Positions 287 through 48,888 of a DNA stretch of 64,000 bases are shown here, in pieces. The position numbers were made by a program, and so were the translations under genes. Source of the DNA: Thermosipho japonicus (GTDB lineage: Bacteria > Thermotogota > Thermotogae > Thermotogales > Fervidobacteriaceae); NCBI RefSeq assembly GCF_014201655.1, contig NZ_JACHEX010000003.1, positions 62,001 through 126,000 of the forward strand, read 5' to 3'. Under the pieces are notes generated by a model. That model was not told the origin of the DNA. It saw only the letters and a program-made list of their open reading frames with translations, and did no database searches. Every line of letters begins with the position of its first letter. The stretch's first letter is position 1.

Positions 287-316
287 TTGACTTTTACAAA
301 AAAAGTATGGTAGTAT
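287..316 (+). promoter_or_regulatory. Sigma-70-type promoter of the truncated metallophosphoesterase/RES unit
   Basis: TTGACT (287-292) and TAGTAT (311-316) are separated by 18 bases, about 40 bases upstream of the ATG at 356. The same pair of hexamers with the same spacing precedes the second metallophosphoesterase copy on the minus strand (48951-48922), although the spacer sequences differ. That conservation supports a real promoter. Confidence 0.6.
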
Positions 317-349
317 TTTGTTAGGTTGATTTCTTTATTTTTAGGGAGG

Positions 350-661
350 ATAGGGATGAGTAAATCGGTTATTGTGAGTGATTTACACATCGGTGACATG
401 TCTGATGCTGATGATTTTTATACCTCCGGTAATTTTGAAAAATTTATAGCCTTTCTTGAATATATTGAAAAAGATGAGGAAATAGAAAAAATAATTATAG
501 CAGGCGATTTATTTGAACTATGGCAATGTAAAGTTGAAAAAATTCTACAAATGTATGTTGATTTATGGAAAGTTTTACTTAAATTAAAAGAAACAGGAAA
601 AAAGATAATTTATATCCCCGGCAATCATGATTCCCTTCCTTTTGCAAAGTTAGTTTACAAA
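350..661 (+). repeat. Left arm of a long inverted duplication (metallophosphoesterase 5' region)
   Basis: This segment matches 48894-48583 on the opposite strand with only about four differences in the roughly 305 coding bases. It runs from just before the start codon to codon 102, where the two copies diverge abruptly. The arms are about 48 kb apart in inverted orientation. Confidence 0.9.
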
Positions 662-736
662 TATTTTTATTCCTACCTTTTGATTTCGCTTATACTTAAA
701 TTATTTAATACTTCGAAAAGATTGGAGAGATTTTGA
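356..736 (+). pseudogene. Truncated metallophosphoesterase
   Basis: The ATG at 356 follows the ribosome site AGGGAGGA, so I prefer it to an upstream in-frame start. The first 102 residues are those of a calcineurin-like (LpxH-type) metallophosphoesterase, with SDLHIGD, AGDLFE and PGNHD metal-binding motifs. After Lys102 the frame enters an unrelated 24-residue hydrophobic tail and stops. The C-terminal GH metal motif seen in the second copy (48403-48888) is missing, so activity is unlikely. The stop overlaps the ATG of the next gene (TGATG), so translation is probably coupled. This looks like a recombination product in which the 5' part of one gene replaced the 5' part of the gene ahead of the RES gene. 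Confidence 0.8.
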
Positions 737-16370: not shown

Positions 16371-16748
16371 TTATTCACCACCATTTTTACCTTTACCCAT
16401 TGCCTTCACATGATATCTTGAATATACAAGAACTTTTTCAAGTACATCCTTGAAAAATAAAAGTTTTTCCAGATCTTCCGACAATTTCTCAAAAAACTTT
16501 TCAGATAAGCCTTTATCATTTTTATCTAAAATTCCAAATGATATTATTAACTCTTTTAAACCATTAAAAATTTTATCCCAAAATTCTTTATTCTTTTCAT
16601 CTTTTAATATGTTTCTTGAAAATATCCAAAGAGCATACACGCCATAATTTGACAAAACTCCAAGCATTTTATTAACATTATTCTCATTTTTTAAATATTT
16701 AACAATTTCAAAACTAGTTTTGTTTATACTTGCTTCAAGATTTTTCAT
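16371..16748 (-). CDS. cmr5: Cmr5-like small subunit
   Basis: 125 residues, nearly all helical, matching the size and composition of Cmr5 (gr11), which stacks along the target RNA in the belly of the Cmr complex. ISKNT-like early helices and the segment MLGVLSNYGVYALWIFSR fit the family. The start overlaps the stop of the preceding cmr4-like gene by 14 bases and is served by GGGGGAG. Assignment rests on size, fold and position. Confidence 0.7.
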   Translation of the reverse strand: MKNLEASINKTSFEIVKYLKNENNVNKMLGVLSNYGVYALWIFSRNILKDEKNKEFWDKIFNGLKELIISFGILDKNDKGLSEKFFEKLSEDLEKLLFFKDVLEKVLVYSRYHVKAMGKGKNGGE

Positions 16749-17835
16749 TGCTATCTCCCCCGTTACTTTTATTAAGTTTTGTTAAAACTTTCATCCTCCC
16801 AAATCCTCTAGTTGTCATGCCTCCTACACCGAGTGTTTCGTAATACTTTTTAGAATCTTCCAACATTTTAAAAACAAATTCTTTTGATGGCAAGTCTTCA
16901 TTTAACTTACTGCGATCAAAAAATCTTATCTCACCATAAAAAATGGTACCTCTTGGAATTGCTTCAGAAGTAAAAAGTGCACCTTCTTTGGCTGCTCCTG
17001 TTATTGGATTAATAGATACCGATGTTCTTACTTCTAAATTAGAGTTTATTATCTGTGAAATAAGATAGTCAGGAACGATTACTATATCACTTAGAGAAAT
17101 GGCTCCTTCCAATAAAGATAGATCTATATTAGTTCCCACTTTTTTGTACGGAAAATATAACCATCCAAGATTGATATGACCTTCCTTATCACCTTCATCA
17201 GTAACTGCATAACAAACAAGTTCGTTAACATTATTTCCCCTGCTTTCATCTAAAATCCCAGCTTCTTTTAACAACTTTTCCGATGTTATCCATTTTGTAC
17301 CTAGCATGGTAAAAACCGGGTAAAATAATATTTTTAAATCCGAAAAGAAAAGTAAGCCTTGCATTGATATATCTTTTTTTGAAAAACCAAATGACTTACA
17401 GACTATACAATGTCCACAATGCCCAGTTTCTTCTTCAATATCATCAATACTCTTATTTGGCAAATCATCCTGACCAGCGCATTTTATTCTTGCAACTTTA
17501 TTTCCTGGATAACTTTCCCAATCCTGTTCACCAAATGGAAAATCATCTTTCCATTTGACGTTTTTTAATTTACTGCTAAAATTTTCTCCATTTACACTTT
17601 TTATATCCTTAAAACTTGGTTGATAGTCTTTTACTCTACTTACTAATTCTAAAGCAGAATAATATCTCCATGTACCTGCTATACTACTTCCCGGGATTTT
17701 TGGTATCTTTGTTATAGGATCTCTAACTATTGTATTATCAACTCTTCCAATGTTATATCCTCCAGTACCTATATAAATAGGATCCATGGCTTGCGTAAAA
17801 ATCCTTTTATTTGTAACAAGCATATGATCTACCAT
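16735..17835 (-). CDS. cmr4: Cmr4-like backbone subunit (Cas7 RNase)
   Basis: 366 residues; the ATG at 17835 follows GGGGGT. The N-terminus DPIYIGTGGYNIGRVDNTIVRD is the Cmr4/Csm3 pattern. Asp33 in RVDN is in the position of the conserved aspartate that cuts target RNA at six-base steps. PGSSIAGTWRYYS is the usual RAMP helix. HCGHCIVCKSFGF is a cysteine cluster like that of Csm3-type proteins and probably binds zinc. GVGGMTTRGFGRM is the C-terminal glycine-rich loop. RNA cleavage therefore seems intact even though the operon's Cas10 looks dead. Confidence 0.85.
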   Translation of the reverse strand: MVDHMLVTNKRIFTQAMDPIYIGTGGYNIGRVDNTIVRDPITKIPKIPGSSIAGTWRYYSALELVSRVKDYQPSFKDIKSVNGENFSSKLKNVKWKDDFPFGEQDWESYPGNKVARIKCAGQDDLPNKSIDDIEEETGHCGHCIVCKSFGFSKKDISMQGLLFFSDLKILFYPVFTMLGTKWITSEKLLKEAGILDESRGNNVNELVCYAVTDEGDKEGHINLGWLYFPYKKVGTNIDLSLLEGAISLSDIVIVPDYLISQIINSNLEVRTSVSINPITGAAKEGALFTSEAIPRGTIFYGEIRFFDRSKLNEDLPSKEFVFKMLEDSKKYYETLGVGGMTTRGFGRMKVLTKLNKSNGGDSNEKS

Positions 17836-17849
17836 TTTTTTACCCCCTT

Positions 17850-20800
17850 TTATACCTTCAAAATCTTATACCAAAATTCAAACATATCGATAAACATATA
17901 TAATTTTTCTTCAAATTTATCTTCTGGCATTTTTTCCAAACTTTCCCAGTTTTCCACTCCGAAAACTTTTGCAAACTCGTCTTTTTTAGTTCCCATTAAC
18001 TCTAAAACATTCACAAAAGAAGAAAGTATGAAGATTTTTAGAGAATATAGATCATCCCAGTCAAGCAATTTTGAATATATAAGTGTAACTAATTTTTGAA
18101 GCTTTGATTCAGAATTAATATCGTTCTTGAAAAACTCATTAAACTTACTAAAATATTGCCAATCTTCTACATCGTATGGTCTATTTTTCTTAATAAATAT
18201 TTTCCTTTTTCCTTTTTCATAATATATTTCATTTCTTCTTGCATTTGAATCTAAAAACTCAAAATCAAATGTATTAGGATAAAACCAAAAAATATCTTTA
18301 TCATTTGAATTTTGTGTTGTATCAATCCATACTTTCGCATCATTGCTAGGATATAGATAAAAAGCATATCCTCTTTGAACAGCATCTGCTCTCTCGAATA
18401 AAGAATAATATTGTTCACTATTATTTTCATCACAGCTGCAGCAACAACCAGCATGCTTTTGTCTACTCTTAAAATCGCCCACAGTAATTTTTTTCTTTAA
18501 ATCCTCCCATTTTTGAAAATCTCTTCTAATTCTTCTTAGCGCTTTTAATCCAACATACAAAGGTTTCTTATAATTTTGAACAACAATGCCAATATGTAAA
18601 GGGAGTTTCCCATAAACCCATTTGAAATACTTATAATATTCATTTTTTACGCTTTCAATCAAATTCGGAACATATTCTGCAGGAATAATAAGCTGCCAAC
18701 TTACTGGTGTTGGAGAAAGTATTGTAAAAAATGGTTCGTACTCTTCTTTATTTGCATCTTTTATATAAAGCTTTTCAACAAAGTGTGTATCATCATCAAT
18801 TTTTTTAATTTCAAATGAATCCTTGTTTCCAACTTTCTCTATCGATGAAATTAAATATACTGTATTTCTTTTAGCCCAGAAAAGAATATCTCCATCAGCA
18901 TACTCGCCATCTGGAATATTTACTCTTTCCCAATACAATCTTTGACATCTACTCTTGGGAAAACCCAATAATTTTGATTTTTTCTTTTCTAAATTCTCAA
19001 AGAAACTTTTTGTTGTTTCCCAAATTCTTCTAAGTCTTGCAGGAGAAGGATTTTTTCTGAGGAGGAATTGTAATATTATTTTGCTCAAAAATTCAATATC
19101 AGTACTTTCATCTAATTTTCTCCAATTTATTTCTCTTTGTTCAAAATTAATCACATCATCCGATAAATTTTTCAATATTAAACTTTCCCATCTAGATCCA
19201 ATAGCTCGTTCCAAAATTAAATTTTTAATTTGTAATATCAAATAGTTAATAGCAAAAATTTTATAAAGATGATCTTTTACATTCTTTTTATTATAATATT
19301 CTTCTATAGGATATTTTTTCTTCTTTTTCGTGTTCGCTATAATTTCGTTAGTCGAACTATCATAAAATGAAAAATGTTCTAGCCATGCTTTTTCTTTGAT
19401 AAGAGTTACAGCAATTTTTCTGTTTTTTTCTTCTACATTATCAAATGATTTATTTTTTTTCAAATTTTCAAAGATGTTCTCATACGGTTTTTTTATTCCT
19501 CCCTCATCAAACAATGAAAGAAATTTTTCTATATTTTTTTCATCAAATTGGTCTAACTGCAATTTTCTTACTTCAGAACTGTTTATCTGATTCTCTATAA
19601 ATATTAATAGTGATTTAATAACATTTTCATATTCAGATTGCCTTTCAACTCTAACAAGTAATGAATTAAAAAAATTACCATTAATCCATTCATTTGGTTC
19701 AAATTTTAAAGTTATAAGTGCTATTCTTCCATTTTTGTCTTGTAGTTCATCCAGCCAAATAGTCTCACCATTTCTATTATCTAACCAGTTTTTCATTCTT
19801 TCCCCTTGCCTTTTTAAGCAGGTATCGCATATTAATTCGTTTAATTTACTTTTCTTTTCAACTGTTCTTACTCCACATATTTGACAAACACCTATTTTCA
19901 AGCTGTTGTTATTGTTATTTTCATTATTTTTATACAACACCTTAGCTTTTAAAAAATTTTCTGGTGCTTTTTCAATTAATTTCCCCAAATTCATTAGCCC
20001 TCTTGATGATTCTGAAAGAAAAATAGCAGGATATATTTCATCATTAAAAACCTCTCTAAATTTTTCAATTATTTTTTCTTCTAGTTTTTTTAGATCTTCT
20101 TTTAATTTATAAAATTCACCTTCTTTTTCACCTTTTAAAAGTTCAGAAACAACAAAATATATTCCCGTTTCATCTCTGTAGATTTCATTCCCAATCGGAC
20201 ATTCTTCTTCTAAAAGTTGTTTTACCTCACTATCTACCTTTTTTATATTTTTTCTATACCATTGTATATTTGATATCTTTAATGCTTTTTCTGAAAGACC
20301 TAATTTATCATATTGAATACCAAGAATACACCATTTTATATTACTAGGCTTATTAATGTACTCATCAACTTTTTCTTTGTATAAGTATAATCCTGATAAA
20401 GCTGCTTTATAAAGAGAAGCCACCATATAAACTTGATCATATAAAGTAACATCGTTAACAGGAAATCTATTATCACTCAATAAATGCGTGTACCATTTTT
20501 TTATTTCTAATAAAATCCAGCTCCGCACTTTTCGCCAATCAGAATTTTCAATACCATTATTATCTTTTAAATAGTTATGTAAATTTTTAAAAAATTGCTT
20601 TCTTTTTTCGTCAAAATTCTTTTCTTCTACACTTTCCACAAAACCTCCAAAAGCATTTGAAATATATAATCTTTTAAGTATTTCTTTAGGAAATCCTTTA
20701 TCTATTCCCGAGTTTAGATTTTCACATCCTCTAAAGAAAATTCCCTCAAAATCTTTATCAAAAACTTTTATCCATTCAACTTCTGATGAATTAGGTAACC

Positions 20801-21038
20801 TAATTTTTTGATTAAAAAAGTTTTTAAATACTTGATCTACTTCGTCAATCTCATCTTTAAATAATTTATCATAATAATCTTCATATCTTCTAATTTTTTG
20901 CTTTGCATTAGGAAAATATTTTATCCAATTATTAAGCCCAATATGAGTTTTTCCAATGTTAAAAAGTAACGCTCCAATTTCAGCCTTTAATATATCTTCT
21001 TTATGGTTCAAAATTTTCTCAATAGCACATGAATCCAT
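17850..21038 (-). CDS. csx11: Csx11-type Cas10 homolog lacking HD and GGDD motifs
   Basis: 1062 residues; ATG at 21038 with GAGGTG, directly after the upstream gene. The size, the central C4 zinc finger (CQICG near residue 385, CDTC about 20 residues later) and the palm-like segment KLPLHIGIVV...KPLYVGLKALRR mark a large Cas10 subunit, best matched to Csx11 of Cmr-like (III-C type) systems. Where active Cas10 has LLHDIGK, this protein has LLFNIGK (Phe26-Asn27). Where the palm should read GGDD before a LAVLPA-like strand, it reads SPTPVSWQLIIPAEYV. Both DNase and cyclic-oligoadenylate synthesis are therefore predicted lost. The protein probably serves as a structural subunit that caps crRNA. 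Confidence 0.8.
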   Translation of the reverse strand: MDSCAIEKILNHKEDILKAEIGALLFNIGKTHIGLNNWIKYFPNAKQKIRRYEDYYDKLFKDEIDEVDQVFKNFFNQKIRLPNSSEVEWIKVFDKDFEGIFFRGCENLNSGIDKGFPKEILKRLYISNAFGGFVESVEEKNFDEKRKQFFKNLHNYLKDNNGIENSDWRKVRSWILLEIKKWYTHLLSDNRFPVNDVTLYDQVYMVASLYKAALSGLYLYKEKVDEYINKPSNIKWCILGIQYDKLGLSEKALKISNIQWYRKNIKKVDSEVKQLLEEECPIGNEIYRDETGIYFVVSELLKGEKEGEFYKLKEDLKKLEEKIIEKFREVFNDEIYPAIFLSESSRGLMNLGKLIEKAPENFLKAKVLYKNNENNNNNSLKIGVCQICGVRTVEKKSKLNELICDTCLKRQGERMKNWLDNRNGETIWLDELQDKNGRIALITLKFEPNEWINGNFFNSLLVRVERQSEYENVIKSLLIFIENQINSSEVRKLQLDQFDEKNIEKFLSLFDEGGIKKPYENIFENLKKNKSFDNVEEKNRKIAVTLIKEKAWLEHFSFYDSSTNEIIANTKKKKKYPIEEYYNKKNVKDHLYKIFAINYLILQIKNLILERAIGSRWESLILKNLSDDVINFEQREINWRKLDESTDIEFLSKIILQFLLRKNPSPARLRRIWETTKSFFENLEKKKSKLLGFPKSRCQRLYWERVNIPDGEYADGDILFWAKRNTVYLISSIEKVGNKDSFEIKKIDDDTHFVEKLYIKDANKEEYEPFFTILSPTPVSWQLIIPAEYVPNLIESVKNEYYKYFKWVYGKLPLHIGIVVQNYKKPLYVGLKALRRIRRDFQKWEDLKKKITVGDFKSRQKHAGCCCSCDENNSEQYYSLFERADAVQRGYAFYLYPSNDAKVWIDTTQNSNDKDIFWFYPNTFDFEFLDSNARRNEIYYEKGKRKIFIKKNRPYDVEDWQYFSKFNEFFKNDINSESKLQKLVTLIYSKLLDWDDLYSLKIFILSSFVNVLELMGTKKDEFAKVFGVENWESLEKMPEDKFEEKLYMFIDMFEFWYKILKV

Positions 21039-21039
21039 A

Positions 21040-22059
21040 TTACTTCACCTCATTACAGCAAATTTCAATTTTTTGTTTTTCTATCGTAAATCTTCCCCAA
21101 CCTAGTTTGCTTTTCGCACCAATTCCTATGTCGGAAATCTTTTTAAAAGATGATTTTATAAATTTCACATCTTTTTCTACTTGATCTTTTAAAACTTCTC
21201 TCTCTAGCCTTATACCATCAAATGGTATATAAACAATTTGAACAATACCTCTTGAATCTTTAGAGACAACTTCAAAAAAAATAGGTCTTTTTCCTTTTCT
21301 TTCTTTTCTGCTGTGAGGATTAATGACTTCCGTTGACAGACTACTTAAAAACGTAGGATAAAATATTGCACGCCCTTTGTGTGTTTTTAAGAAAAAAGGA
21401 AGATTCTTTTTTGACGTTTCTCCATACTTTTCCCATATGTTATTTCTTACCCAATTTTTGAAATTTTCTTTTTTTCTCAAATTGTCTATATCATCTTTTT
21501 TCAATCTCAGACCTAATTCAAATATTAAATACTTAATTATCTCATCCATAGATTTTTCTTTTAATTTATTCTCAAGTAATTCACTCAACATTTTCGTAAA
21601 TTTCGTAAATTCCATAGAACCTGTTCCAAATATTCTTGCAAAAGATTGTATATAATCGATTGCTTTTTCTTCTGTATTTGATGAAAACAATGATTCGTTA
21701 ATTAATATTTTAAAAGCATTAGCAAATGCTCCTTTCCATGCAGAGCCTCTAATCATAGGTATTTTAAAAGCCTTATCCTTTAAACATAAATTTTTCTTAG
21801 TTAAGTTATAATCTTCATCATCCTTTGAAAAATATGGATTAATTAGCTCGATTTCTGCCCAAAAAATAAACGAATAAGGCATTAACCTACTTATATAATT
21901 TTCCAACTCATCCTCTTTTAAAATCCCACTTAGACTTTTTACTTTTTCTATTATATTCAAGGTATTATTACCTATCATTAAACCGTTATATTCAAGCATT
22001 TTATTTTTTTTATCTTTTTCCATATTTATGTATGTTTCAAACTTAAGTGACTTATTCAT
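21040..22059 (-). CDS. RAMP protein of the Cmr-like effector (Cmr6-like)
   Basis: 339 residues from the ATG at 22059; a GTG at 22068 is in frame but badly placed relative to GGAAG. The ATG overlaps the stop of cmr1. It contains the Cas7-type motif IPMIRGSAWKGAFANAF and the C-terminal loop GIGAKSKLGWGRFTI. This is closest to Cmr6 among the standard subunits, and its place between cmr1 and cas10 allows that, but the N-terminal 60 residues are not typical. It probably forms the 3' end of the effector filament. Confidence 0.65.
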   Translation of the reverse strand: MNKSLKFETYINMEKDKKNKMLEYNGLMIGNNTLNIIEKVKSLSGILKEDELENYISRLMPYSFIFWAEIELINPYFSKDDEDYNLTKKNLCLKDKAFKIPMIRGSAWKGAFANAFKILINESLFSSNTEEKAIDYIQSFARIFGTGSMEFTKFTKMLSELLENKLKEKSMDEIIKYLIFELGLRLKKDDIDNLRKKENFKNWVRNNIWEKYGETSKKNLPFFLKTHKGRAIFYPTFLSSLSTEVINPHSRKERKGKRPIFFEVVSKDSRGIVQIVYIPFDGIRLEREVLKDQVEKDVKFIKSSFKKISDIGIGAKSKLGWGRFTIEKQKIEICCNEVK

Positions 22060-23008
22060 TCTTTTCACTTCCTTTCAAAAAATTCACAATTGAGATAAAA
22101 CCAACTTTTAACCCCCCCTCATATTTATCTTTTTGAATTTGATACGTAACTAAAGGAAATATTTTACTTCCCTCTTTCTTACTTCCAAACAAATACTTAC
22201 TAATTTTATATCCATTTCGTTTATTAGATTTAATCTCTTTAAGTTTCTTTATTAATTCACTATATCCTTTGCCGTCAATATTTTCCAAAAATAAAACGTT
22301 AATCTTTTTATTTTTAGATAATAAAGTTTCAAAATCTTCTTCTTCGCCCTCTTCAACTTTAACAATGTCACTTTTTTCACTATTTTCTGAAAAAAATTTA
22401 TTCTCATCTTCAAATAATTTAAATTTAAACTCATTTTCTCTCCATTGCCATTTGTTCAATACCTTTCCGTCCATTTTTATATTCACAACTTGTAACCTTC
22501 CATATCCTAATGACCATTTTCCTCCCCAAAAACCATATAATTCCATAAAGTACAACAAGGGATAAAATATTGGATTAATTATCTTTTCTTCTATTTCAAA
22601 AGCAACTTCAAACGTTCCCCAAAAATAAGGGTTTCTATAACTATTATCTAAATTTAAATAGTTACCAAAACAATATTTCCCGACTGGTTTTATTTTTTTT
22701 ATCCTAATCCATCCTTTCCAATCATTACAACCAAAAATTTTGGAAGATAAGCTCAGTTTAAATTCAGAAAAAATTTTATTCAAAGATTCAAAATCAATCC
22801 CCTCTTTTAAAATAAAGTTTTGAAAATTTTTTGAATCAAAATTCCCCAAATCATTGATTTGTAAACCTGAAAAATAACAAACAACATCCAACCAAAACCT
22901 TAAAGAGCCAATTAAGCTTGAAGGTCTTATTTCATTAGTTATTCCTTTATAGTTTCCTGTCCACAAAGGACTGAGAGTTTTAAATTTAATCTTTAGCTCT
23001 TTATTCAT
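22052..23008 (-). CDS. cmr1: Cmr1-like subunit
   Basis: 318 residues; ATG at 23008 after GGGGGAC. The opening KIKFKTLSPLWTGNYKGI...EIRPSSLIGSLRFWLDVV is the Cmr1 pattern, and WGGKWSLGYGRLQV is its glycine-rich loop. Cmr1 sits at the head of the Cmr effector and is needed for complete assembly on target RNA. It is the first gene of the operon, with the CRISPR array ending about 95 bases upstream in the same direction. All six genes are spaced tightly or overlap, so they form a single transcript. Confidence 0.85.
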   Translation of the reverse strand: MNKELKIKFKTLSPLWTGNYKGITNEIRPSSLIGSLRFWLDVVCYFSGLQINDLGNFDSKNFQNFILKEGIDFESLNKIFSEFKLSLSSKIFGCNDWKGWIRIKKIKPVGKYCFGNYLNLDNSYRNPYFWGTFEVAFEIEEKIINPIFYPLLYFMELYGFWGGKWSLGYGRLQVVNIKMDGKVLNKWQWRENEFKFKLFEDENKFFSENSEKSDIVKVEEGEEEDFETLLSKNKKINVLFLENIDGKGYSELIKKLKEIKSNKRNGYKISKYLFGSKKEGSKIFPLVTYQIQKDKYEGGLKVGFISIVNFLKGSEKNE

Positions 23009-23102
23009 GAAGCGTCCCCCGTTCTTTATTTATATATAATTTTAAACTCTTTGAAATAAATCTAAATTTACGAACATAAACTGGCTATGATTGTAAAATA
23101 GA

Positions 23103-23672
23103 ATTTCAATTCTTATAAGGTAAGGTACAAACGATCCTTCGCTTCGCGTTCACTGCGCGAAGGAGATAAAAGTTTCAATTCCTACAAGGTAAGGTACAAA
23201 CAAGTAAAACAACTAAAGGTTAGAAAAAATGGAAGACTGTTTTAATTCCTACAAGGTAAGGTACAAACGTTCTATTACTGTTCCTTTTTGTGCCTCAGGA
23301 TATATATAGTTTCAATTCCTACAAGGTAAGGTACAAACAAAAATTAGATTTTTTAGAACAAAATGGAATAACATTGTTTCAATTCCTACAAGGTAAGGTA
23401 CAAACGATAAATATGGAATAATTGTCAATACGTTTGACAAGTTTCAATTCCTACAAGGTAAGGTACAAACTACAAGCCGAACTAGCTGAAATAAATTTAC
23501 AGTCGCAAGTTTCAATTCCTACAAGGTAAGGTACAAACAATAATTGATAAGCTTGGGGAAAAAGCTAATTGGAGGTTTCAATTCCTACAAGGTAAGGTAC
23601 AAACGCAAGATATTCATCAGACAGACAAAGTGATACTTCTATGTTTCAATTCCTACAAGGTAAGGTACAAAC
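23103..23672 (-). CRISPR. CRISPR array, 9 repeats and 8 spacers
   Basis: A 30-base repeat, reading GTTTCAATTCC...GGTACAAAC on the plus strand, occurs at 23103, 23172, 23239, 23309, 23376, 23441, 23509, 23575 and 23643. Spacers are 35-40 bases. On the minus strand the repeat ends in ATTGAAAC, the usual 5' handle of type III crRNAs, so transcription is leftward. The copy at 23103 has three mismatches and the one at 23239 has one. Degeneracy at the leftmost copy fits the trailer end. A minus-strand promoter lies just right of the array. No cas1, cas2 or cas6 is in the window, so adaptation and processing must come from elsewhere. Confidence 0.97.
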
Positions 23673-38314: not shown

Positions 38315-41300
38315 TTAAATTTCTCTATATTCATATCCCGGAGGAAAAGCTTTGAATTTTCTATCATTAGGCTCTTCGCCCATTTTTGAAATTTCTTTTC
38401 TGTAATTTTGCAAATGTTTTATTGGAATATCTACTACTTGTGCACCAAATATCCTATTTCCTTCAAGTGTTAATGCTTCTCTTTTGTGAATATCATAATA
38501 TGGAATTCTAACAACTGAACCACCATACACCCCAGTGTTGGCAATAACAAAGTTACAAAATACTAATTTACTCATAGCATCCGCTAATCCTATGTATGTA
38601 TTTACATCTTTGTTATAAGCAGGGACAAATATAGTATCGACATAACCTTTTAAGAATGAAAGGGTTTCTAATGAAAGGGCATCATAACATATCAAAATTG
38701 AAAATACACCAATGTTTTCAGACGAGTAAATAACAATTTTATCATCTTCAACTATTGTTATATTTCTTTCTTTGAAGTACTTTCTTTCTACATTATTGAA
38801 ATATTTTTTTAAACCATGAACTTTTAAAAGATATATGTCATTGTAAGGCCAAAGTAAAACATATCTATTACTAACTTCATCATTATTTAAATAATATTCC
38901 GTACCATATATGGCAATTTTACCAGTTTTTTTAGACCATTCTATTATATCCTTTTCAATATCTTTTGGAATAGAAAGCTCTGGTGCAATTAATAGATCTA
39001 TATCTTTTTCTTGAAAAACCTTTAATGCTACTATAATTTCTTTTCTCAACATACTTACAATTGGTTCTTTGTAAGACATATCATTATTAATATATTTGTA
39101 ATTACCTGCAAAATAATTTATAGTAGGTTGGAAAATTCCTATACGTAAAAAAGGTTTTAAAGAAGCCTTCCCATAAATTATTAATGGTAATCTAATATTC
39201 ATAGTATATTGCTTTTGAGAAATTATGTTTTCCAATTCTAAACGTATTATTTCTTTTAATTCTTTCTTCGAACTTTCATAAGGTTTGAGATCAACATAGC
39301 TATATTTACCTATAGCATCTGACAATTTGTTTATTATAGAACTGCTAGCAATAAGATTTTCTGTAAGTTCCTTCCATACATCCCTGAAAAGATTTCTTTT
39401 TTCAAGTTCAATTTGAGAAGAAAAACTTTCTAATAAAAATTCTTGTTTTAAAATTTGAATTATAATCCAATATAGTCCACGTTTTTTATCTTTTTTAGTT
39501 AAACTATCTTCGTGAGAAGTAACTTTAATAACTTTTTTAATATCTTCTTCTCTCTCTTTTTCATCTTTTTCCTTTTCTTCTTCTTTTTTATCTAATTTAT
39601 CTAATTCTTTTTTACCACCTAAAATTTCTTGGCTTAGTTTGTTGAAAGATTTTGTATCAATTTTTATTTTAAAGATACCATCCAAATCATCTTCTAAAAA
39701 ATCTTGAATTTCAAAAAGTAAATATATTAATAGTAATTTTTGAAAATAGGATAACTTAGCAATTTTCACAAAATTTGTCAAAGATATTTCTCCCATGTCA
39801 GACTTATCTCTTTGACATTTTACCTGCAGATATTCGTTAATATTATTTAAAATTAATTCACGATTTGGTTCCTCCTTCGTTTTATCAATTAAATCTTTAA
39901 GCGTCTTCTTGACACTGGCTGTGTCGGGAAGAATATTGTCATATGTTCCTTTTACTAATAATTGGACTAATTTATTAATGCCATCATTATCTTTTATTTC
40001 TTCAAGCACTTTTAAAGATTTTATTAAAATTTCTTCTTTTAGTTTTTTATTTTCTAAAGATGAATACATTCTAAAAAACATGTAAGCCTTTAATTTTTCT
40101 GAAATATTTTTATTATTTTCTACACTTTCAAGAATAAGCTTAGAAGATTCCAAATCATCTCGTTTTGCTCGAAACATGTTAATCAGTAATTTGTAACATA
40201 GACTTTCATCATCTTTAGTTTCAGTTGACAAATTATAGACAGAAACTTTTGAATTAATTATCTTTTTATATTCATTTTCGTTGCTGATACGTTCTGCTCC
40301 TTTCAGAATTTTCTCCTTGAACTTCTTATTTTTAAAATCCAATAGTGTTATTAAATCTAATAATTCAGATACTAGCATAGGATTGTTTTCAAACAAACTC
40401 ATTTTTTTTCCATCTAAAATTTTTTTAATTACATTATTAATATCCCTTATAAATTCTTCAGGAATATAAACGTTTTCGTACAAATTTTTTCTTAATACTT
40501 GATTTATATACTTTAAAAATTCCAAGTAAAGATATGCCTTCCCATCATTTTCTATCATTACCTTTTCCTCAATAAAATCTAAAATTTTGACTAGGTAATT
40601 TTTTTTAATTTTATTTTTACAAGGATCTGAAAATTTATCTCCATTAGAATATATTAGAAATATAAGTTCTATATATCTTTTATAAAGTTTCGTTTTAGAA
40701 GGAGTATTGATAATAGCATATTCTAGGTCTAAAAGTGCGTTCTCTATTAAAGTTCTAATTTTTACTTTGTTTTCTCTTTCTTCATTTAATTTTATAACAT
40801 TTGAGAAACCTTCCAATTTTAATTCTTTTTCTAAATTACACCATTGTTCTGACTTAAAGATTAAAGGGTGTTTTAATGCATTTTCAACAATTTTTGTAAT
40901 TAAATGCGCAGAAAATGATCTACGGGTTTGTGGTGCGATTTTATCTTCATCAAAATATGATCTAATCAAATTTCTTGTACGATCAAAACTTTCTAAAAGC
41001 TCTTTCATTGTAGATAAACCAAATATTTTTTCGGACAGAATAGACATTTCGTTAAAAACTGTTGTTTGAAAGTCTTGATAATTTTCTCTAGTTAAAGTAA
41101 AATTTTCTAAAAACATTTTTCTTAAACTATCTATTTCTACTAAATCATCTTCATTAAAAATTATTCTTAAGAAGTTTTCGTTAAATTTTTCCTCATCATC
41201 ATTAATTTTATTTGAATCATTTAATTTTAGTAAGTTTAATACTCGATTAAAAAAGGAATTATTATCATTTGTATTCTTATCCAAAAAAGCTTTGCAATAT

Positions 41301-42439
41301 TTGTAGTAATCGTTCAAAATACTAGGCTTTAGTTTATCTAAATTTATACTAAGCCCTAGCTCTTTCAAGTCTTTTTCAATATCTTTTGCAGTATTAATTA
41401 AGGTTTGAAAATTACTTGAAATAAGCACAATATCGTCTACATATCTAAAATAGCCAAATATTTCTCTATTATCGAATTTCTCATTGATCAATTCATCCAT
41501 CTTAACATCGAGATTGAAAAGATAGATATTGGACATAAAGCCAGATGCCAACAATCCAACTGGGAGACCTACGTTTGTTGGACTGTCGTGGTTTCCAAAA
41601 GCTCCTTTTATTTGAAAATTCAATAGTTTTTCTAAGTAATTCTTAATTTTATTTTTGTCTTCACTCAAACTAGTAAACTCAAGTATTTTTTTAACATTGT
41701 TCAATAAATTTTTGATATTTATGGAAGGAAAAAATCTTTTAATATCAATTTTCATATAGAATAATTTATCTATTTTAGAAGTACAATTATCAATATTTTT
41801 GTAGCAAAATAGTGGAAATTTACTCTTCCATACATCAAAGTCCTTCTCTTTGTTTTTAATCTTTTTATGAACCCAAATAGCTTCTCCATCCAAATTTTCT
41901 TCCATATTCAGTAATTCTTTTTCAATATCTGTAAGTTCTAGTCTAAGAATATTTCCTAAAAAAATCTTTTGGTATCTTCTAAATGGTTTATATGACATAT
42001 TAAATGATCTATATATTTCTTTGCTTGGCACATTGTAATCACTATATTCCCATTTTCCAGTCTTTAAATTTTTCCCTAAAAATCTCCACATTCTATTTCC
42101 AAAAGAATATCTTGGCATAATTTTGTCTATTGGAGGTCCAAAAATGTTCAAAAAGCTTATCCAAAGGACTTGAAAATCAAATGGTATGTAATAATAATCT
42201 CTAGTTTTCCCAGATGATTTTGGTATTTTATAGTAATAGAGTGGAATAAAAAAATCTTCTTTAGAATCAGTAGCCGCAATAATATCAATCATGCTTTTAA
42301 TTTCTTTAATTTTTCCTTCTAAATTCCATTCCCATTCAAATGCTTCACTTTCAACCAAACTTCCGTTAAGTGCATTCCTTACCTTTAAATATGCTCTTAG
42401 TATGTTTGAATCATTTTTCCAATCTTCTAAGAAACCCAC
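38315..42439 (-). CDS. drt1: Reverse transcriptase-nitrilase, DRT type 1 (UG1) antiphage protein
   Basis: 1374 residues, starting at GTG (42439) seven bases after GGAGGGG. The N-terminal third is a reverse transcriptase of the 'unknown group': KIDIKRFFPSI (Asp232), GLPVGLLASGFMSN (291-304) and RYVDDIVL (YVDD at 333-336). A helical region of some 700 residues follows, with a highly charged Lys/Glu stretch near 950. The C-terminus is a nitrilase fold: APELSIP (Glu1154), KVHGLKK (Lys near 1206-1212) and LICYDAL (Cys1251), giving the Glu-Lys-Cys triad. This fusion defines DRT1, shown in other bacteria to protect against phage. Both active sites look intact. It stands alone, next to other defense genes. 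Confidence 0.9.
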   Translation of the reverse strand: MGFLEDWKNDSNILRAYLKVRNALNGSLVESEAFEWEWNLEGKIKEIKSMIDIIAATDSKEDFFIPLYYYKIPKSSGKTRDYYYIPFDFQVLWISFLNIFGPPIDKIMPRYSFGNRMWRFLGKNLKTGKWEYSDYNVPSKEIYRSFNMSYKPFRRYQKIFLGNILRLELTDIEKELLNMEENLDGEAIWVHKKIKNKEKDFDVWKSKFPLFCYKNIDNCTSKIDKLFYMKIDIKRFFPSINIKNLLNNVKKILEFTSLSEDKNKIKNYLEKLLNFQIKGAFGNHDSPTNVGLPVGLLASGFMSNIYLFNLDVKMDELINEKFDNREIFGYFRYVDDIVLISSNFQTLINTAKDIEKDLKELGLSINLDKLKPSILNDYYKYCKAFLDKNTNDNNSFFNRVLNLLKLNDSNKINDDEEKFNENFLRIIFNEDDLVEIDSLRKMFLENFTLTRENYQDFQTTVFNEMSILSEKIFGLSTMKELLESFDRTRNLIRSYFDEDKIAPQTRRSFSAHLITKIVENALKHPLIFKSEQWCNLEKELKLEGFSNVIKLNEERENKVKIRTLIENALLDLEYAIINTPSKTKLYKRYIELIFLIYSNGDKFSDPCKNKIKKNYLVKILDFIEEKVMIENDGKAYLYLEFLKYINQVLRKNLYENVYIPEEFIRDINNVIKKILDGKKMSLFENNPMLVSELLDLITLLDFKNKKFKEKILKGAERISNENEYKKIINSKVSVYNLSTETKDDESLCYKLLINMFRAKRDDLESSKLILESVENNKNISEKLKAYMFFRMYSSLENKKLKEEILIKSLKVLEEIKDNDGINKLVQLLVKGTYDNILPDTASVKKTLKDLIDKTKEEPNRELILNNINEYLQVKCQRDKSDMGEISLTNFVKIAKLSYFQKLLLIYLLFEIQDFLEDDLDGIFKIKIDTKSFNKLSQEILGGKKELDKLDKKEEEKEKDEKEREEDIKKVIKVTSHEDSLTKKDKKRGLYWIIIQILKQEFLLESFSSQIELEKRNLFRDVWKELTENLIASSSIINKLSDAIGKYSYVDLKPYESSKKELKEIIRLELENIISQKQYTMNIRLPLIIYGKASLKPFLRIGIFQPTINYFAGNYKYINNDMSYKEPIVSMLRKEIIVALKVFQEKDIDLLIAPELSIPKDIEKDIIEWSKKTGKIAIYGTEYYLNNDEVSNRYVLLWPYNDIYLLKVHGLKKYFNNVERKYFKERNITIVEDDKIVIYSSENIGVFSILICYDALSLETLSFLKGYVDTIFVPAYNKDVNTYIGLADAMSKLVFCNFVIANTGVYGGSVVRIPYYDIHKREALTLEGNRIFGAQVVDIPIKHLQNYRKEISKMGEEPNDRKFKAFPPGYEYREI

Positions 42440-42500
42440 TTTTCAACCCCTCCAATTAAAAGTATCATCAATAACTTTCAATAGGAAAATAATAAAAAAG

Positions 42501-42600
42501 GCTACACCTGTTACATATATAAAACATCAATATGAAGGTGTAACCCATGAAAGTGTTCTCTTCAATTTTATTTTACTACAAAAATACTCTTCAAACTATT
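42501..42600 (+). mobile_element. Decayed insertion sequence end, copy B
   Basis: GGCTACACCTG, then GAAGGTGTAACCC and TATTTTACTACAAAAATACTC match copy A (23943-24060) in order and spacing. The reading frame LFNFILLQKYSSN resembles LNIILLQKLLN of copy A in a shifted frame. Nothing beyond the first 30 or so codons of a transposase is recognisable. Confidence 0.45.
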
Positions 42601-43222
42601 TAATACTGTATAGATTGGAAAGATCGTCAAAAAAGAAAATGAAGAATTTTACAACAAAAAATATCCACACAGCGCGTTGAAACACAGAAGTCTCCGGGAG
42701 GTATACAAAAAATATCTAAGTTATACAAAAATTTCTTGATTTTTGTCTAATTTCTTGGGAGACATTACAATACGGATATATTCTCTCTTTCTTTTATAAA
42801 GTTCATTTAAAGTAGTGATTTTAAACAATTCAACCCTTTCAAATCTCAAGATAAAAAAAGCTTTCAAATCAACTTTTCACCTCTTTTTAAAGCTTGAGAA
42901 AAAGACAACAATTTTGATATAAATAAATTCTACTTCTGCATACTTAGGAAACATTATTACATTCCAAAAAAGATCCTATTATAATTAGAATTACTAATAA
43001 TAAAATCTTTCTATTTTTTGCAAAATATTTACTCTCCCCAATTAACATTAACAGAATTATTTCAAAAACAACTTTATGTTTTCTTCCTAAAAGGAGTTTT
43101 TACCACTTTAATTAGTCTTTTTGAAAATCCAGAGTATTTAGATTTCTCTTTATTTATCTTTCAGTCATTACTTTAAATAAAACTTAATTGACAACATATT
43201 ACTTTCGAAATTTACCTACTAA
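42601..43222. other. Gene-free interval upstream of the reverse transcriptase gene
   Basis: About 620 AT-rich bases. GTCTCC at 42691-42696 and GGAGAC at 42760-42765 could pair over a long loop, but the stem is only six bases. No ORF with a ribosome site is found. A noncoding RNA for the adjacent reverse transcriptase is not excluded. Confidence 0.4.
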
Positions 43223-43942
43223 CTATTCATTCGAACTTACTTCAATAAATTTATTCCCTAAATATCTTAAATTTAATTCCGTTTGTTTAAAGAATGAATC
43301 CCAATTTTTATAAATTCTAAAACTTAAATCTTTGTCAGAATACTCTTTTCCAATATACTTTTTTATTAATTCTCTCAAACCTGGCACAATCCGTGTAAAT
43401 TCATACCTTTTCTTGTAGCAGGGACATGCTGGTATTTTATAAATATCTATGAAACCTCTTTTTATATTTTTTGGGACACATTTAGCATTTTTCTTCCAAT
43501 ATGTCTTTTCTCGATAGTTTTTGGGAATACATTTTTTATTTTCAAAATCATCTTTCCACCCCCAAAAATCTTTACATAACTTTTTAAAAAGATTATCATC
43601 AACTATAGTAAAATCAATATCAGAATTCTTGCCAAAATTTTTTGGAAAACAATTAGGGTCTAACGAATAACCTATTCTCGCACTTCCTATAATAAACATG
43701 TTTTTAGGAAAAATACCTAGCTTGCTTGCTAAATAACTCCTTATTCTCTCATACAAGTATGGTACATCTTTAAAAACATAAGGGACTCCTTCAGTCAGCC
43801 ACAAGCGTATAAACTCTTTCAATTTATACGGCTTTATACTTTCATCTTTTAATATACACACAAAAGTATTTTTTAAAGATTTATGCTCTGGATATGGATG
43901 TTTTAAATCCAATAACTCTCTTTCAATTTCATAAAAATTCAT
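43223..43942 (-). CDS. Nucleotidyltransferase-like protein
   Basis: 239 residues. The sequence GSARIGYSL (Gly86-Ser87) followed by SDIDFTIVD (Asp108, Asp110) is the active-site pattern of the pol-beta/MNT nucleotidyltransferase superfamily, which transfers AMP or other nucleotides to proteins or RNA. A cluster of cysteines (PACPCYKKRYEF) follows. Its ATG overlaps the end of the GT51 gene by 14 bases, with GGGGGG serving as ribosome site inside that gene, so the two are co-translated. It ends an operon that also holds HEPN-type genes; MNT nucleotidyltransferases commonly act as antitoxins to HEPN RNases. That pairing here is inference. Confidence 0.7.
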   Translation of the reverse strand: MNFYEIERELLDLKHPYPEHKSLKNTFVCILKDESIKPYKLKEFIRLWLTEGVPYVFKDVPYLYERIRSYLASKLGIFPKNMFIIGSARIGYSLDPNCFPKNFGKNSDIDFTIVDDNLFKKLCKDFWGWKDDFENKKCIPKNYREKTYWKKNAKCVPKNIKRGFIDIYKIPACPCYKKRYEFTRIVPGLRELIKKYIGKEYSDKDLSFRIYKNWDSFFKQTELNLRYLGNKFIEVSSNE

Positions 43943-44561
43943 AGACCCTTCCCCCCATAACTTGAATTTTCACTCTAAAAAACATCTTATATATACTATA
44001 TAGTTCTTCTAAATCTTCTTGAGTAAGTAGTTTTTTTATTTCAGGTCGCTTTAATATTCTCTGTATTCTATCAATCCTAACTTTATTTGGTAACGCAATT
44101 CTTTCTACTAAGAAGAAACTTTGAGCTTTACTAAGAGTTATGGGTTGTTTATTAAAATATCCTAATGCAGCTTCATAAACGCCAAAATATGATTTTCCAA
44201 AATATACTTTATTTAAATACCTATACATAATTTCTTCTTTTGAATATTTTTTCTCAAATACAATAGCACCATAAACTTTTTTTAACTTGTCTATCACTTT
44301 TCCAAAGCATAAATTTAAATTACTATTCTCAAGTACAAATAATTGCTGCGAAATAGTACTTGCTCCTTGTTTTATACTCAAATATCTAGCATTAACGAGA
44401 AAAGCTCTTATAAACCCTAAATAGTCAATTCCTTTATGACTCAAAAATCTCTTATCTTCGATAAGAAAAACAAATCTTAGAAAATCACTACTTATTTGAT
44501 ATTTTTTTGAAAAATTTTCTATCCATAAATTACATATATTCAAATATTTATTCTCCAGCAT
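43929..44561 (-). CDS. Soluble stand-alone GT51 peptidoglycan glycosyltransferase
   Basis: 210 residues from the ATG at 44561, which follows AGAGGTAAT; an upstream ATG at 44603 has no site. It carries the GT51 motifs in order: IEDKRFLSHKGID (catalytic Glu35), QGASTISQQL, SKEEIMYRYLNKVYFG and GVYEAALGYF, so it looks like a complete transglycosylase catalytic core. Normal enzymes of this family polymerise lipid II outside the membrane and have an N-terminal membrane anchor. Here the first 25 residues are not hydrophobic, there is no signal peptide, and no transpeptidase domain follows. Its place in a HEPN-nucleotidyltransferase operon is unlike a cell-wall gene. Confidence 0.8.
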   Translation of the reverse strand: MLENKYLNICNLWIENFSKKYQISSDFLRFVFLIEDKRFLSHKGIDYLGFIRAFLVNARYLSIKQGASTISQQLFVLENSNLNLCFGKVIDKLKKVYGAIVFEKKYSKEEIMYRYLNKVYFGKSYFGVYEAALGYFNKQPITLSKAQSFFLVERIALPNKVRIDRIQRILKRPEIKKLLTQEDLEELYSIYKMFFRVKIQVMGGRVYEFL

Positions 44562-44620
44562 AAAAATTACCTCTTTAATTTTTGTTTTTGCATTTTTTAA
44601 CACCTATACAAACAACTTTT

Positions 44621-45393: not shown

Positions 45394-46442
45394 TTATAGA
45401 TTTTTACCAAAAATCTTTTTATATTCCTCTTTGTTAGCTAATTTGTCTATTAAAAAATCTATCCATTCTTGTGTATAAACATACTGCCCGAAAGCTTCAT
45501 CATAGTAGCAATATTTTTCATTGGTTCTAAATGGGTCCTTTGCTCCATTTTTAGGCCTTATCTTGTAATATTTCCAACATTTTGAATGATGATAGCTTGC
45601 TGTAAATTTCCAATCTTTTGGCATTTTATTTTTAAGTGCTTCATAGACTTTTTTAGCAACTTTACTGGGCCTAAATTCACCATTACTTCTTTTTTCTTTA
45701 ATTGCTATCAAGAATTTCTTGTACAGTTTCATTTCTTTAGGTTTGGATGGATCGTATTTAATAAATTCTATAGCTACATCTGATGTTTTTTCTCTATTTC
45801 CAACTTTAGGTATTAAAAAAACTCTAAAACTAAATTTTGGATCTGAAAATATATTCGATGGCAAAGCGCTATGGTATTTATCAATATATTTTTTTACACC
45901 TTCATATTCCTTTGCCACTTTTTTTCTCTCAAGGCCTGTTTTTGCTTTTCTTTGTAATATGATGAAAATTGTAAAGCAAATACCAGATTTTCTTTTAAGG
46001 CATATTTTTCTCCAAATTCTTTTTCTATGAGATTTTCGTAATTAATTAACATAGCTTGACATTCACCGAAAATATCCATATCAAGCTCTGGTAGAAAGCG
46101 ATGTTCTATTTTGTTTCTTAATTTTACAAAAAACTATAAATTCTTGCGTTCAGGTGGATTGTTATTTTTAAAATATTTATTTAAACATTTTTTTAATTCC
46201 CATGCTTTTTTCTCACTATCAACTCTTATATACCTTCCACCTTTGTTTTTGTAAAAATACTTTACTTTTTGTCTTTCAAAAATTGCATGAAAAAGAGAAG
46301 TCCAGGCAATAATCATTAAAACTATGTACCCACCAGAACGAAAAGTCATATTCGGTTTATTGTATATTTCTACTGCCAAAAGTGCTGATTCTCTCGACTT
46401 TTGAAGTAAGAATTTTACTTTTTTTGATAACCTTTTTCCCAA
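45394..46442 (-). pseudogene. DUF3644 HEPN gene broken by an amber codon and a frameshift
   Basis: The minus strand from 46442 reads KSRESALLAVEIYNKPN, FRSGGYIVLMIIAW and PPERKNL. After an in-frame TAG (46136-46134) it continues FFVKLRNKIEHRFLPELD and ends at 45894. RNKIEH is an HEPN Rx4H motif. A one-base shift in an A-run near 45920 leads into VAKEYEGVKKYIDKYHSALPS, continuing to 45394. Read through, the three pieces form one DUF3644-like protein of about 348 residues. The TAG replaces a codon just before the HEPN motif. Probably a pseudogene; recoding or sequencing error are the alternatives. Confidence 0.75.
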
Positions 46443-48402: not shown

Positions 48403-48888
48403 CTAATGCACACCTTTTGAACCTCCCGCAAGTGTGGAAACATCTCTGTTATATATATCAAATCTATGACCATGTTCAACCCATAGATTACCCTCACAAT
48501 AATAGGGAAATATTAATTTTCTTTTTTCATCAATGTCGTATTTATCTGTTAATTGGATTGGGCCAAAAGGAAATGGAGCAGCTTTGTAGACTAACTTTGC
48601 AAAAGGAAGGGAATCATGATTGCCGGGGATATAAATTATCTTTTTTCCTGTTTCTTTTAATTTAAGTAAAACTTTCCATAAATCAACATACATTTGTAGA
48701 ATTTTTTCAACTTTACATTGCCATAGTTCAAATAAATCGCCTGCTATAATTATCTTTTCCATTTCCTCATCTTTTTCAATATATTCAAGAAAGGCTATAA
48801 ATTTTTCAAAATTACCGGAGGTATAAAAATCATCAGCATCAGACATGTCACCGATGTGTAAATCGCTCACAATAACCGATTTACTCAT
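48403..48888 (-). CDS. Metallophosphoesterase (LpxH-like), short form
   Basis: 161 residues; the ATG at 48888 is preceded by a G-rich site (GGGGGGATAGGG). Metal-binding motifs SDLHIGD, AGDLFE, PGNHD and HGHRFD are all present, so the calcineurin-like site could be complete, although relatives such as LpxH are about 240 residues and the end (AGGSKGVH) is abrupt. The first 102 codons are nearly identical to the truncated copy at 356-661. It is the first gene of a unit with the OLD nuclease. Natural short form or C-terminal truncation cannot be decided from the sequence. Confidence 0.75.
   Translation of the reverse strand: MSKSVIVSDLHIGDMSDADDFYTSGNFEKFIAFLEYIEKDEEMEKIIIAGDLFELWQCKVEKILQMYVDLWKVLLKLKETGKKIIYIPGNHDSLPFAKLVYKAAPFPFGPIQLTDKYDIDEKRKLIFPYYCEGNLWVEHGHRFDIYNRDVSTLAGGSKGVH

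What the first reader, a model, noticed from the sequence alone, without database searches (positions are those of the whole stretch)
38315..42439. Intact DRT1-type reverse transcriptase-nitrilase in a probable thermophile
YVDD and the Glu-Lys-Cys triad are all present, with some 700 residues of helical protein between. The mechanism of DRT1, including the role of the nitrilase, is not settled, and a heat-stable version would suit structural work. A 620-base gene-free region lies directly upstream and might hold a template RNA.
Basis: partly seen in the sequence, partly recalled or inferred. Interest (0 to 1): 0.55.

Follow-up and report, generated by a model that had tools for sequence, protein, structure and literature searches.

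The report
Fused UG6-like reverse transcriptase-nitrilase
A heat-loving bacterium carries one intact giant gene that joins a DNA-making enzyme to a nitrilase, probably an anti-virus self-destruct protein; it is a cousin of the recently solved DRT1 system rather than DRT1 itself, so it is a useful but not startling find.

Summary
38315-42439(-) is one open 1374-codon gene with a good ribosome site, an intact RT centre (D232, YVDD 333-336) and an intact nitrilase tetrad (E1154, K1211, E1218, C1251). A 57%-identical full-length relative in a Thermosipho MAG shows purifying selection. The type is wrong: it is not DRT1. By profile scores, BLAST and trees it lies on the UG6 side of the class 3 RTs. 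In both UG6 loci I found, the nitrilase is a separate gene 3 bases downstream; here it is fused to the RT. [quoted passage not shown] And the gene-free upstream region is mostly insertion-sequence debris, including its main hairpin, unlike the Thermosipho relative's upstream region. Most likely mechanism: DNA primed on the protein's own residue (T459 and S466 are best candidates) builds a quiescent assembly, and phage infection releases the nitrilase to kill the cell. All of that is inferred from DRT1. Novelty: new variant of a known kind. Its value is as a one-chain, probably heat-stable handle on untested UG6 systems.

The parts
38315..42439 (-). RT-nitrilase fusion gene, 1374 aa, GTG start
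   Evidence: intact; 57% identical to a full-length Thermosipho MAG protein
42449..42453 (-). Shine-Dalgarno GGAGG
   Evidence: sequence
41240..41842 (-). RT fingers-palm, residues about 200-400
   Evidence: RVT_1 217-371; UG6 profile 107-385
41744..41746 (-). RT motif A Asp D232
   Evidence: alignment
41432..41443 (-). RT YVDD, residues 333-336
41006..41101 (-). conserved block 447-478 after the palm; holds T459 and S466, candidate priming residues
   Evidence: 92% identity to the MAG in residues 451-475; T459 and S466 invariant in 4 of 4 UG6-side proteins; lies where DRT1 has its unresolved priming segment 382-478
39170..40882 (-). middle region, residues about 520-1090, probably helical
   Evidence: 481-1090 matches 0 of 5027 PADLOC models; helical only in a low-confidence model
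38318..39157 (-). nitrilase domain, residues 1095-1374
   Evidence: RTasNitrilase 179 bits; hhalign to DRT1 98.6%, E 1e-15
38978..38980 (-). nitrilase E1154
38807..38809 (-). nitrilase K1211
   Evidence: the seven-residue spacing to E1218 is shared with UG6 and DRT1 (the larger alignment put K1212 here instead)
38786..38788 (-). nitrilase E1218
38687..38689 (-). nitrilase nucleophile C1251
   Evidence: aligns with the ICYD cysteine of DRT1
38336..38353 (-). C-terminal KxxPxG lid motif, residues 1363-1368 (KAFPPG)
   Evidence: aligns with DRT1 K1219-G1224, K1219 and A1223 being essential in DRT1
42500..42545 (-). leader hairpin, also present at ends of insertion-sequence copies elsewhere
42517..42638 (.). 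debris of a DDE_Tnp_1 insertion-sequence end, internally deleted
42629..42780 (.). debris of the 3' end of an rve-type (IS3-like) insertion sequence
   Evidence: 75-82% identical copies in 3 of 4 genomes of the genus; transposase identified

Best explanation
The gene encodes an anti-phage RT-nitrilase of class 3 (UG/Abi RTs), on the UG6 side of that class, with the nitrilase that UG6 makes as a second protein in the two loci seen here fused to the RT's C-terminus. Most likely the RT adds untemplated DNA to one of its own hydroxyl residues in the segment after the palm (T459 or S466 best). The DNA adduct drives nitrilase-cored oligomers that are held inactive by the C-terminal KxxPxG lid. Phage replication releases them, and the nitrilase then destroys an essential amide- or amine-bearing metabolite, ending in abortive infection. 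Shown here: intact motifs, domain order, selection, UG6-side placement, fusion, defence-island setting. Inferred from DRT1/DRT5: priming, oligomerisation, trigger and toxicity.
For: Intact catalytic residues in both domains. dN/dS about 0.2 against the MAG. RT region scores best with UG6 (92 bits; UG36 80; DRT1 73), nitrilase region with RTasNitrilase (179), a profile that the two UG6 partner nitrilases match at 317 and 301 bits. BLAST bits to the two UG6 systems 97-129, to DRT1 at most 80, to UG5 at most 62. The concatenated tree supports {window, MAG, two UG6} at 96.7/89. C-terminal lid motif kept in both intact members and both UG6 nitrilases. Order DRT - metallophosphoesterase (81% id) - wzx-like (71% id) shared with the MAG. 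Neighbours include OLD-like, DUF3644, Hypoth_ymh and, in the MAG, an OLD-TOPRIM plus UvrD pair. Template-free protein priming shown for DRT1, DRT5S and DRT5L (PMC13275509).
Against: No UG6 protein has been tested in any passage I saw, so the mechanism is carried over from cousins at 20-27% identity per domain. The UG6 profile matches only within its first 263 of 925 positions. In the RT-only tree the Leptospira protein falls beside UG6 with weak support (42.8/58), so the UG6 grouping rests mainly on the concatenated data. Only two UG6 loci were available. The DRT1 primer S402 has no certain counterpart. Both structure predictions failed (pLDDT 36 and 34). Both relatives have a leader hairpin that I cannot fully dismiss.
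Confidence: 0.62

Rival explanations
1. It is a member of DRT1 (UG1) proper, with S402-type serine priming.
For: Same domain order and similar chain length; DRT1 is the only solved-structure match covering both domains (E 6e-25); ICYDA and NTGxYGGS motifs resemble DRT1.
Against: Drt1a profile 135 bits against 1278-1441 for four real DRT1s; DRT1 clade excludes it with 100/100 in the concatenated tree; closer to UG6 in both domains; no clear S402 counterpart, 'LSE' at S469 being the nearest motif by eye.
Confidence: 0.06
2. It is an RNA-templated RT (like DRT2, DRT9 or DRT10) whose template RNA lies in 42440-43222.
For: 783 bases without a gene; a hairpin 60 bases before the start folds better than most shuffles (z -2.7, 2 of 200 as good), and the MAG has a hairpin 58 bases before its start (z -3.0, 0 of 200 as good), with no full second copy in five genomes.
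Against: Pieces of the region are copies of two insertion sequences and the hairpin recurs at ends of insertion-sequence copies; no similarity to the MAG's upstream region; no Rfam match at threshold; class 3 cousins work in the presence of RNase A.
Confidence: 0.06
3. The gene is an inactive relic, or has a role other than defence, and its nitrilase is metabolic.
For: The same-genus genome G001 keeps only a broken 3' remnant at the same site; neighbouring DUF3644 and metallophosphoesterase genes here are damaged or shortened.
Against: 1374 intact codons, dN/dS about 0.2, motifs in both domains kept, defence-island setting in both genomes.
Confidence: 0.15

Closest known systems
UG6 class 3 RT with separate nitrilase (loci G755/L085 and G843/L087)
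   Same: Both domains most similar (RT 28-29%, nitrilase 30-32% identity), same long N-terminal region, T459 and S466 invariant, FKAxPPGY C-terminus
   Different: Nitrilase is a separate gene 3 bases downstream in 2 of 2 UG6 loci, fused here; the UG6 profile score is 93 bits against 688 and 392
DRT1 (UG1), PDB 9YFD, PMC13275509
   Same: One chain, RT then a long middle region then nitrilase; catalytic residues and KxxPxG lid
   Different: 20-27% identity per domain; separate clade; S402 primer not clearly conserved; 145 residues longer than the 1229-residue solved chain
DRT5 (UG5-nitrilase, and UG5 RT with separate nitrilase)
   Same: Class 3 RT plus nitrilase, occurring fused (L010, L011) and split (L062)
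   Different: 19-22% identity; separate clade, 99.8/100 in the concatenated tree
Thermosipho sp. MAG GB_MAG9_058 protein (L019/L002)
   Same: Same fused family, 57% identity over full length, same island order
   Different: 1419 aa; different neighbours directly on either side

Membership tests
Class 3 UG/Abi RT | RT joined to, or encoded with, a nitrilase (or phosphohydrolase) | tested here: met
   class definition from PMC13275509
DRT1 (UG1) | Full-length match to the Drt1a profile | tested here: not met
   135 bits in two pieces; four real DRT1s 1278-1441 bits over the whole profile
DRT1 (UG1) | Falls inside the DRT1 clade | tested here: not met
   outside it in nitrilase, RT and concatenated trees
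DRT1 (UG1) | Serine priming site equivalent to S402 | tested here: inconclusive
   segment not alignable with certainty
DRT1 (UG1) | Template-free protein-primed synthesis, filaments, abortive infection | not testable with these tools
   needs purified protein and phage assays
UG5 (DRT5) | Full-length match to the UG5-nitrilase profile or UG5 clade | tested here: not met
   130 bits against 1017-1034 for two real fused members; separate clade
UG6 | RT region matches UG6 best | tested here: met
   92 bits, ahead of UG36 80 and DRT1 73
UG6 | Match over the whole UG6 profile | tested here: not met
   only profile 2-263 of 925; G843 matches 2-916
UG6 | Groups with UG6 in trees | tested here: met
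   96.7/89 concatenated, 84.7/82 nitrilase; RT alone includes the Leptospira protein. Trees are unrooted, so this is UG6-side rather than UG6 proper
UG6 | Nitrilase as a separate downstream gene | tested here: not met
   fused here; separate in 2 of 2 UG6 loci. Whether this defines UG6 is not known to me

The most novel reading that the evidence does not exclude
A UG6-type system reduced to one polypeptide: the RT and the normally separate nitrilase effector are fused in a thermophile, so that DNA priming (on T459 or S466, not at the DRT1 site), assembly and effector are in one chain with a long middle region not detectably like that of DRT1. It would be a third class 3 architecture and would show the class 3 principle reaching beyond DRT1 and DRT5.
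Probability: 0.4. Interest if true: 0.55.

Novelty: new variant of a known kind. Interest (0 to 1): 0.4.

Why it matters
In the papers I saw, the class 3 mechanism has been shown only for DRT1 and DRT5 proteins, and what the nitrilase acts on is still unknown. A single-chain, probably heat-stable UG6 relative would let one test whether protein-primed, template-free synthesis is general to class 3, find the UG6 priming residue, and look for the nitrilase substrate. The natural split and fused UG6 forms also give a ready comparison of whether covalent linkage matters.

Tried and rejected
Template RNA upstream: Rfam at threshold and relaxed (only matches far below threshold), comparison with the MAG leader and copy searches led to insertion-sequence debris. 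The leader hairpin looked interesting because the MAG has one too at the same distance; the window one is explained by insertion-sequence ends, the MAG one stays unexplained.

Structure: AlphaFold2 on residues 175-1374 (pLDDT 36) and on the nitrilase (pLDDT 34), two sequences each; too poor, so no fold search was run. Profile-profile comparison aligned only the nitrilase in all three pairings, so homology of the middle region to DRT1 was not shown.

Relatives: no match in phages or viral contigs; weak class 3 cousins in 14 plasmid records. The one scan of genome contigs found only the Thermosipho MAG, its two peptide patterns being narrow. My first reading, a third lineage apart from DRT1 and UG5, was replaced when UG6 loci were found.
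Full report
What is there. The window is G000:C3:62001-126000 of a 1.92-Mb genome. The gene 38315-42439(-) is a single open frame of 1374 codons from a GTG with GGAGG at 42449-42453. Two hundred mononucleotide shuffles of the gene gave no stop-free run above 150 codons. Pfam finds RVT_1 (residues 217-371, E 7.5e-15) and PADLOC finds a nitrilase of the RT-associated kind (residues 1133-1370, E 4e-52). RT residues D232 and YVDD 333-336 and nitrilase residues E1154, K1211, E1218 and C1251 are all present. The lysine is assigned by the four-protein alignment and by its seven-residue spacing to E1218, which DRT1 and UG6 share; the broader alignment had shifted it by one.

Relatives and selection. 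Of 103 genomes of the phylum, 3 carry this family by the A1 profile: the window's own, a full-length copy in G010, and a remnant in G001; two further hits, G080 and G101, matched only a stretch of the RT at E about 1e-4 and are not counted. G010 is the Thermosipho sp. MAG GB_MAG9_058; its protein is 1419 aa, 57% identical, dN 0.31 and dS 1.55. G001, of the same genus as the window, keeps only the 3' end with stops, 88-93% identical, beside the same SLBB/polysaccharide-export gene, with transposon-like sequence on its 5' side. G002 and G003 have unrelated genes at that place, and G012 has no DRT trace in the sequence left on its contig. Thus the gene was at this site before the split of the window's species and G001, and decayed in one of them. 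In the MAG the order DRT, metallophosphoesterase (81%), wzx-like gene (71%) matches the window, inside a defence island with an OLD-TOPRIM ATPase and a UvrD helicase.

Which family. Against PADLOC the window protein scores RTasNitrilase 175, Drt1a 135, UG5-nitrilase 130 and UG6 93 bits. Four real DRT1 proteins score 1278-1441 bits on the main Drt1a profile (PDLC03745) and two real UG5-nitrilases score 1017-1034, so it is neither. Split into pieces, the RT end is best with UG6 (92 bits) and the nitrilase with RTasNitrilase (179); the 610-residue middle matches nothing. UG6 loci are rare: with E <= 1e-15, 2 of 390 relatives of the window matched, both being this family; with E <= 1e-20, 1 of 398 relatives of G163 and 2 of 399 relatives of G755, one being G755 itself. 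Both UG6 loci, in G755 and G843, have the RT gene followed 3 bases later by a separate nitrilase gene, which match RTasNitrilase at 301 and 317 bits. An aligned set of 13 systems (two of this family, two UG6, five DRT1, three UG5, one Leptospira) gave a concatenated RT plus nitrilase tree in which {window, MAG, UG6, UG6} is separated from the rest with SH-aLRT 96.7 and UFBoot 89; the nitrilase alone gave 84.7/82; in the RT alone the Leptospira protein joined UG6 weakly (42.8/58), the wider split having 94.5/73. DRT1 and UG5 are each monophyletic in the concatenated tree (100/100 and 99.8/100). BLAST agrees: 129 and 97 bits, and 113 and 103 bits, to the two UG6 systems, against at most 80 to DRT1, 62 to UG5 and 69 to Leptospira. 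One hundred and twenty-five residues are invariant in the four UG6-side proteins. The trees are unrooted, so I call it UG6-side, fused.

Mechanism. PMC13275509 (I read parts 1-3 of the text, that is abstract to the end of the results, and the discussion, plus searched passages; not the methods) shows that DRT1, DRT5S and DRT5L make DNA from dNTPs without added template and with RNase A, covalently joined to protein. DRT1 primes on S402, forms nitrilase-cored tetramers and quiescent filaments, and needs both RT and nitrilase activity for phage defence; the nitrilase substrate is unknown. The same text says S402 is not conserved in other class 3 DRTs. The words UG6 and thermophil do not occur in its main text. 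In the window protein the stretch between palm and the RRSFSA motif, which corresponds to the unresolved DRT1 segment 382-478, holds a block that is 92% identical to the MAG (residues 451-475) after poorly conserved stretches. Of its hydroxyl residues T459 and S466 are invariant in 4 of 4 UG6-side proteins; Y378, near the start of the stretch, is also invariant. I therefore name T459 and S466 as the likeliest primers; this is inference. The C-terminal lid motif KxxPxG is kept in both family members and both UG6 nitrilases; it aligns with DRT1 K1219 to G1224, where K1219A and A1223F reduced defence to the level of C-terminal deletions. The alanine is a proline (P1367) here.

Upstream region. 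Bases 42629-42780 are a copy of the 3' end of an rve-type insertion sequence found at 75-82% identity in 3 of 4 genomes of the genus, the own genome included. Bases 42517-42638 match the end of a DDE_Tnp_1 insertion sequence with its middle deleted. The hairpin at 42500-42545 has the same stem at two other places in this genome and, nearly, at an insertion-sequence end in G001. No part of the region is similar to the MAG's stretch directly upstream of its gene. Rfam gives nothing at threshold. Against this, the MAG has its own strong hairpin 58 bases before the start (z -3.0, 0 of 200 shuffles as good), and the window's is 60 bases before (z -2.7, 2 of 200 as good); the MAG one has no full second copy in five genomes. 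I judge a template RNA unlikely but not excluded.

What is in print. Searches for DRT1 with nitrilase, defence-associated RT with nitrilase, UG1/UG5 with nitrilase, class 3 terms, Thermosipho with RT and defence, UG6 with nitrilase and DRT5 listed no paper that names a fused UG6 RT-nitrilase or a Thermosipho one in title or abstract start. [quoted passage not shown] The UG/Abi classification paper of Mestre et al. is not held, so a fused UG6 could be described there.

Verdict. A real, intact, conserved gene; a new variant (fused, UG6-side, thermophile) of a known kind of system; the DRT1 label and the template RNA are not supported, and the statement that the mechanism is unsettled is only half true now.

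Noticed in passing
window 45394-46442 (-): DUF3644 / PDC-S19 gene broken into three ORFs by an in-frame stop and a frameshift; probably a pseudogene.
   Followed up: partly
window 48403-48888 (-): Metallophosphoesterase of 161 aa, 81% identical to a 312-aa gene near the DRT of the Thermosipho MAG; shortened here, with another related fragment at window 314-733.
   Followed up: partly
window 43223-44603 (-): Stand-alone peptidoglycan transglycosylase domain (224 aa) overlapping the start of a 239-aa protein with no Pfam match and a GS...SDID motif reminiscent of nucleotidyltransferases (motif recalled); an odd pair in a defence island.
   Followed up: no
window 16735-23672: Type III-B-like CRISPR module (Cmr4, Csx11, weak Cmr6 and Cmr1 matches) next to a CRISPR-DR2 array with seven matched repeats at 23172-23672.
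   Followed up: no
L019 8875-8942: Strong hairpin 58 bases before the MAG RT-nitrilase start, no full second copy in five genomes searched; function unknown.
   Followed up: partly
L009 2337-5840 (Leptospira plasmid): RT-nitrilase that scores only 136 bits with its best PADLOC profile and branches apart from DRT1 and UG5; possibly another undescribed class 3 lineage.
   Followed up: partly
L085 6042-10022 and L087 5287-9477: UG6 RT and nitrilase as separate genes 3 bases apart in both loci, giving a natural split/fused comparison.
   Followed up: yes
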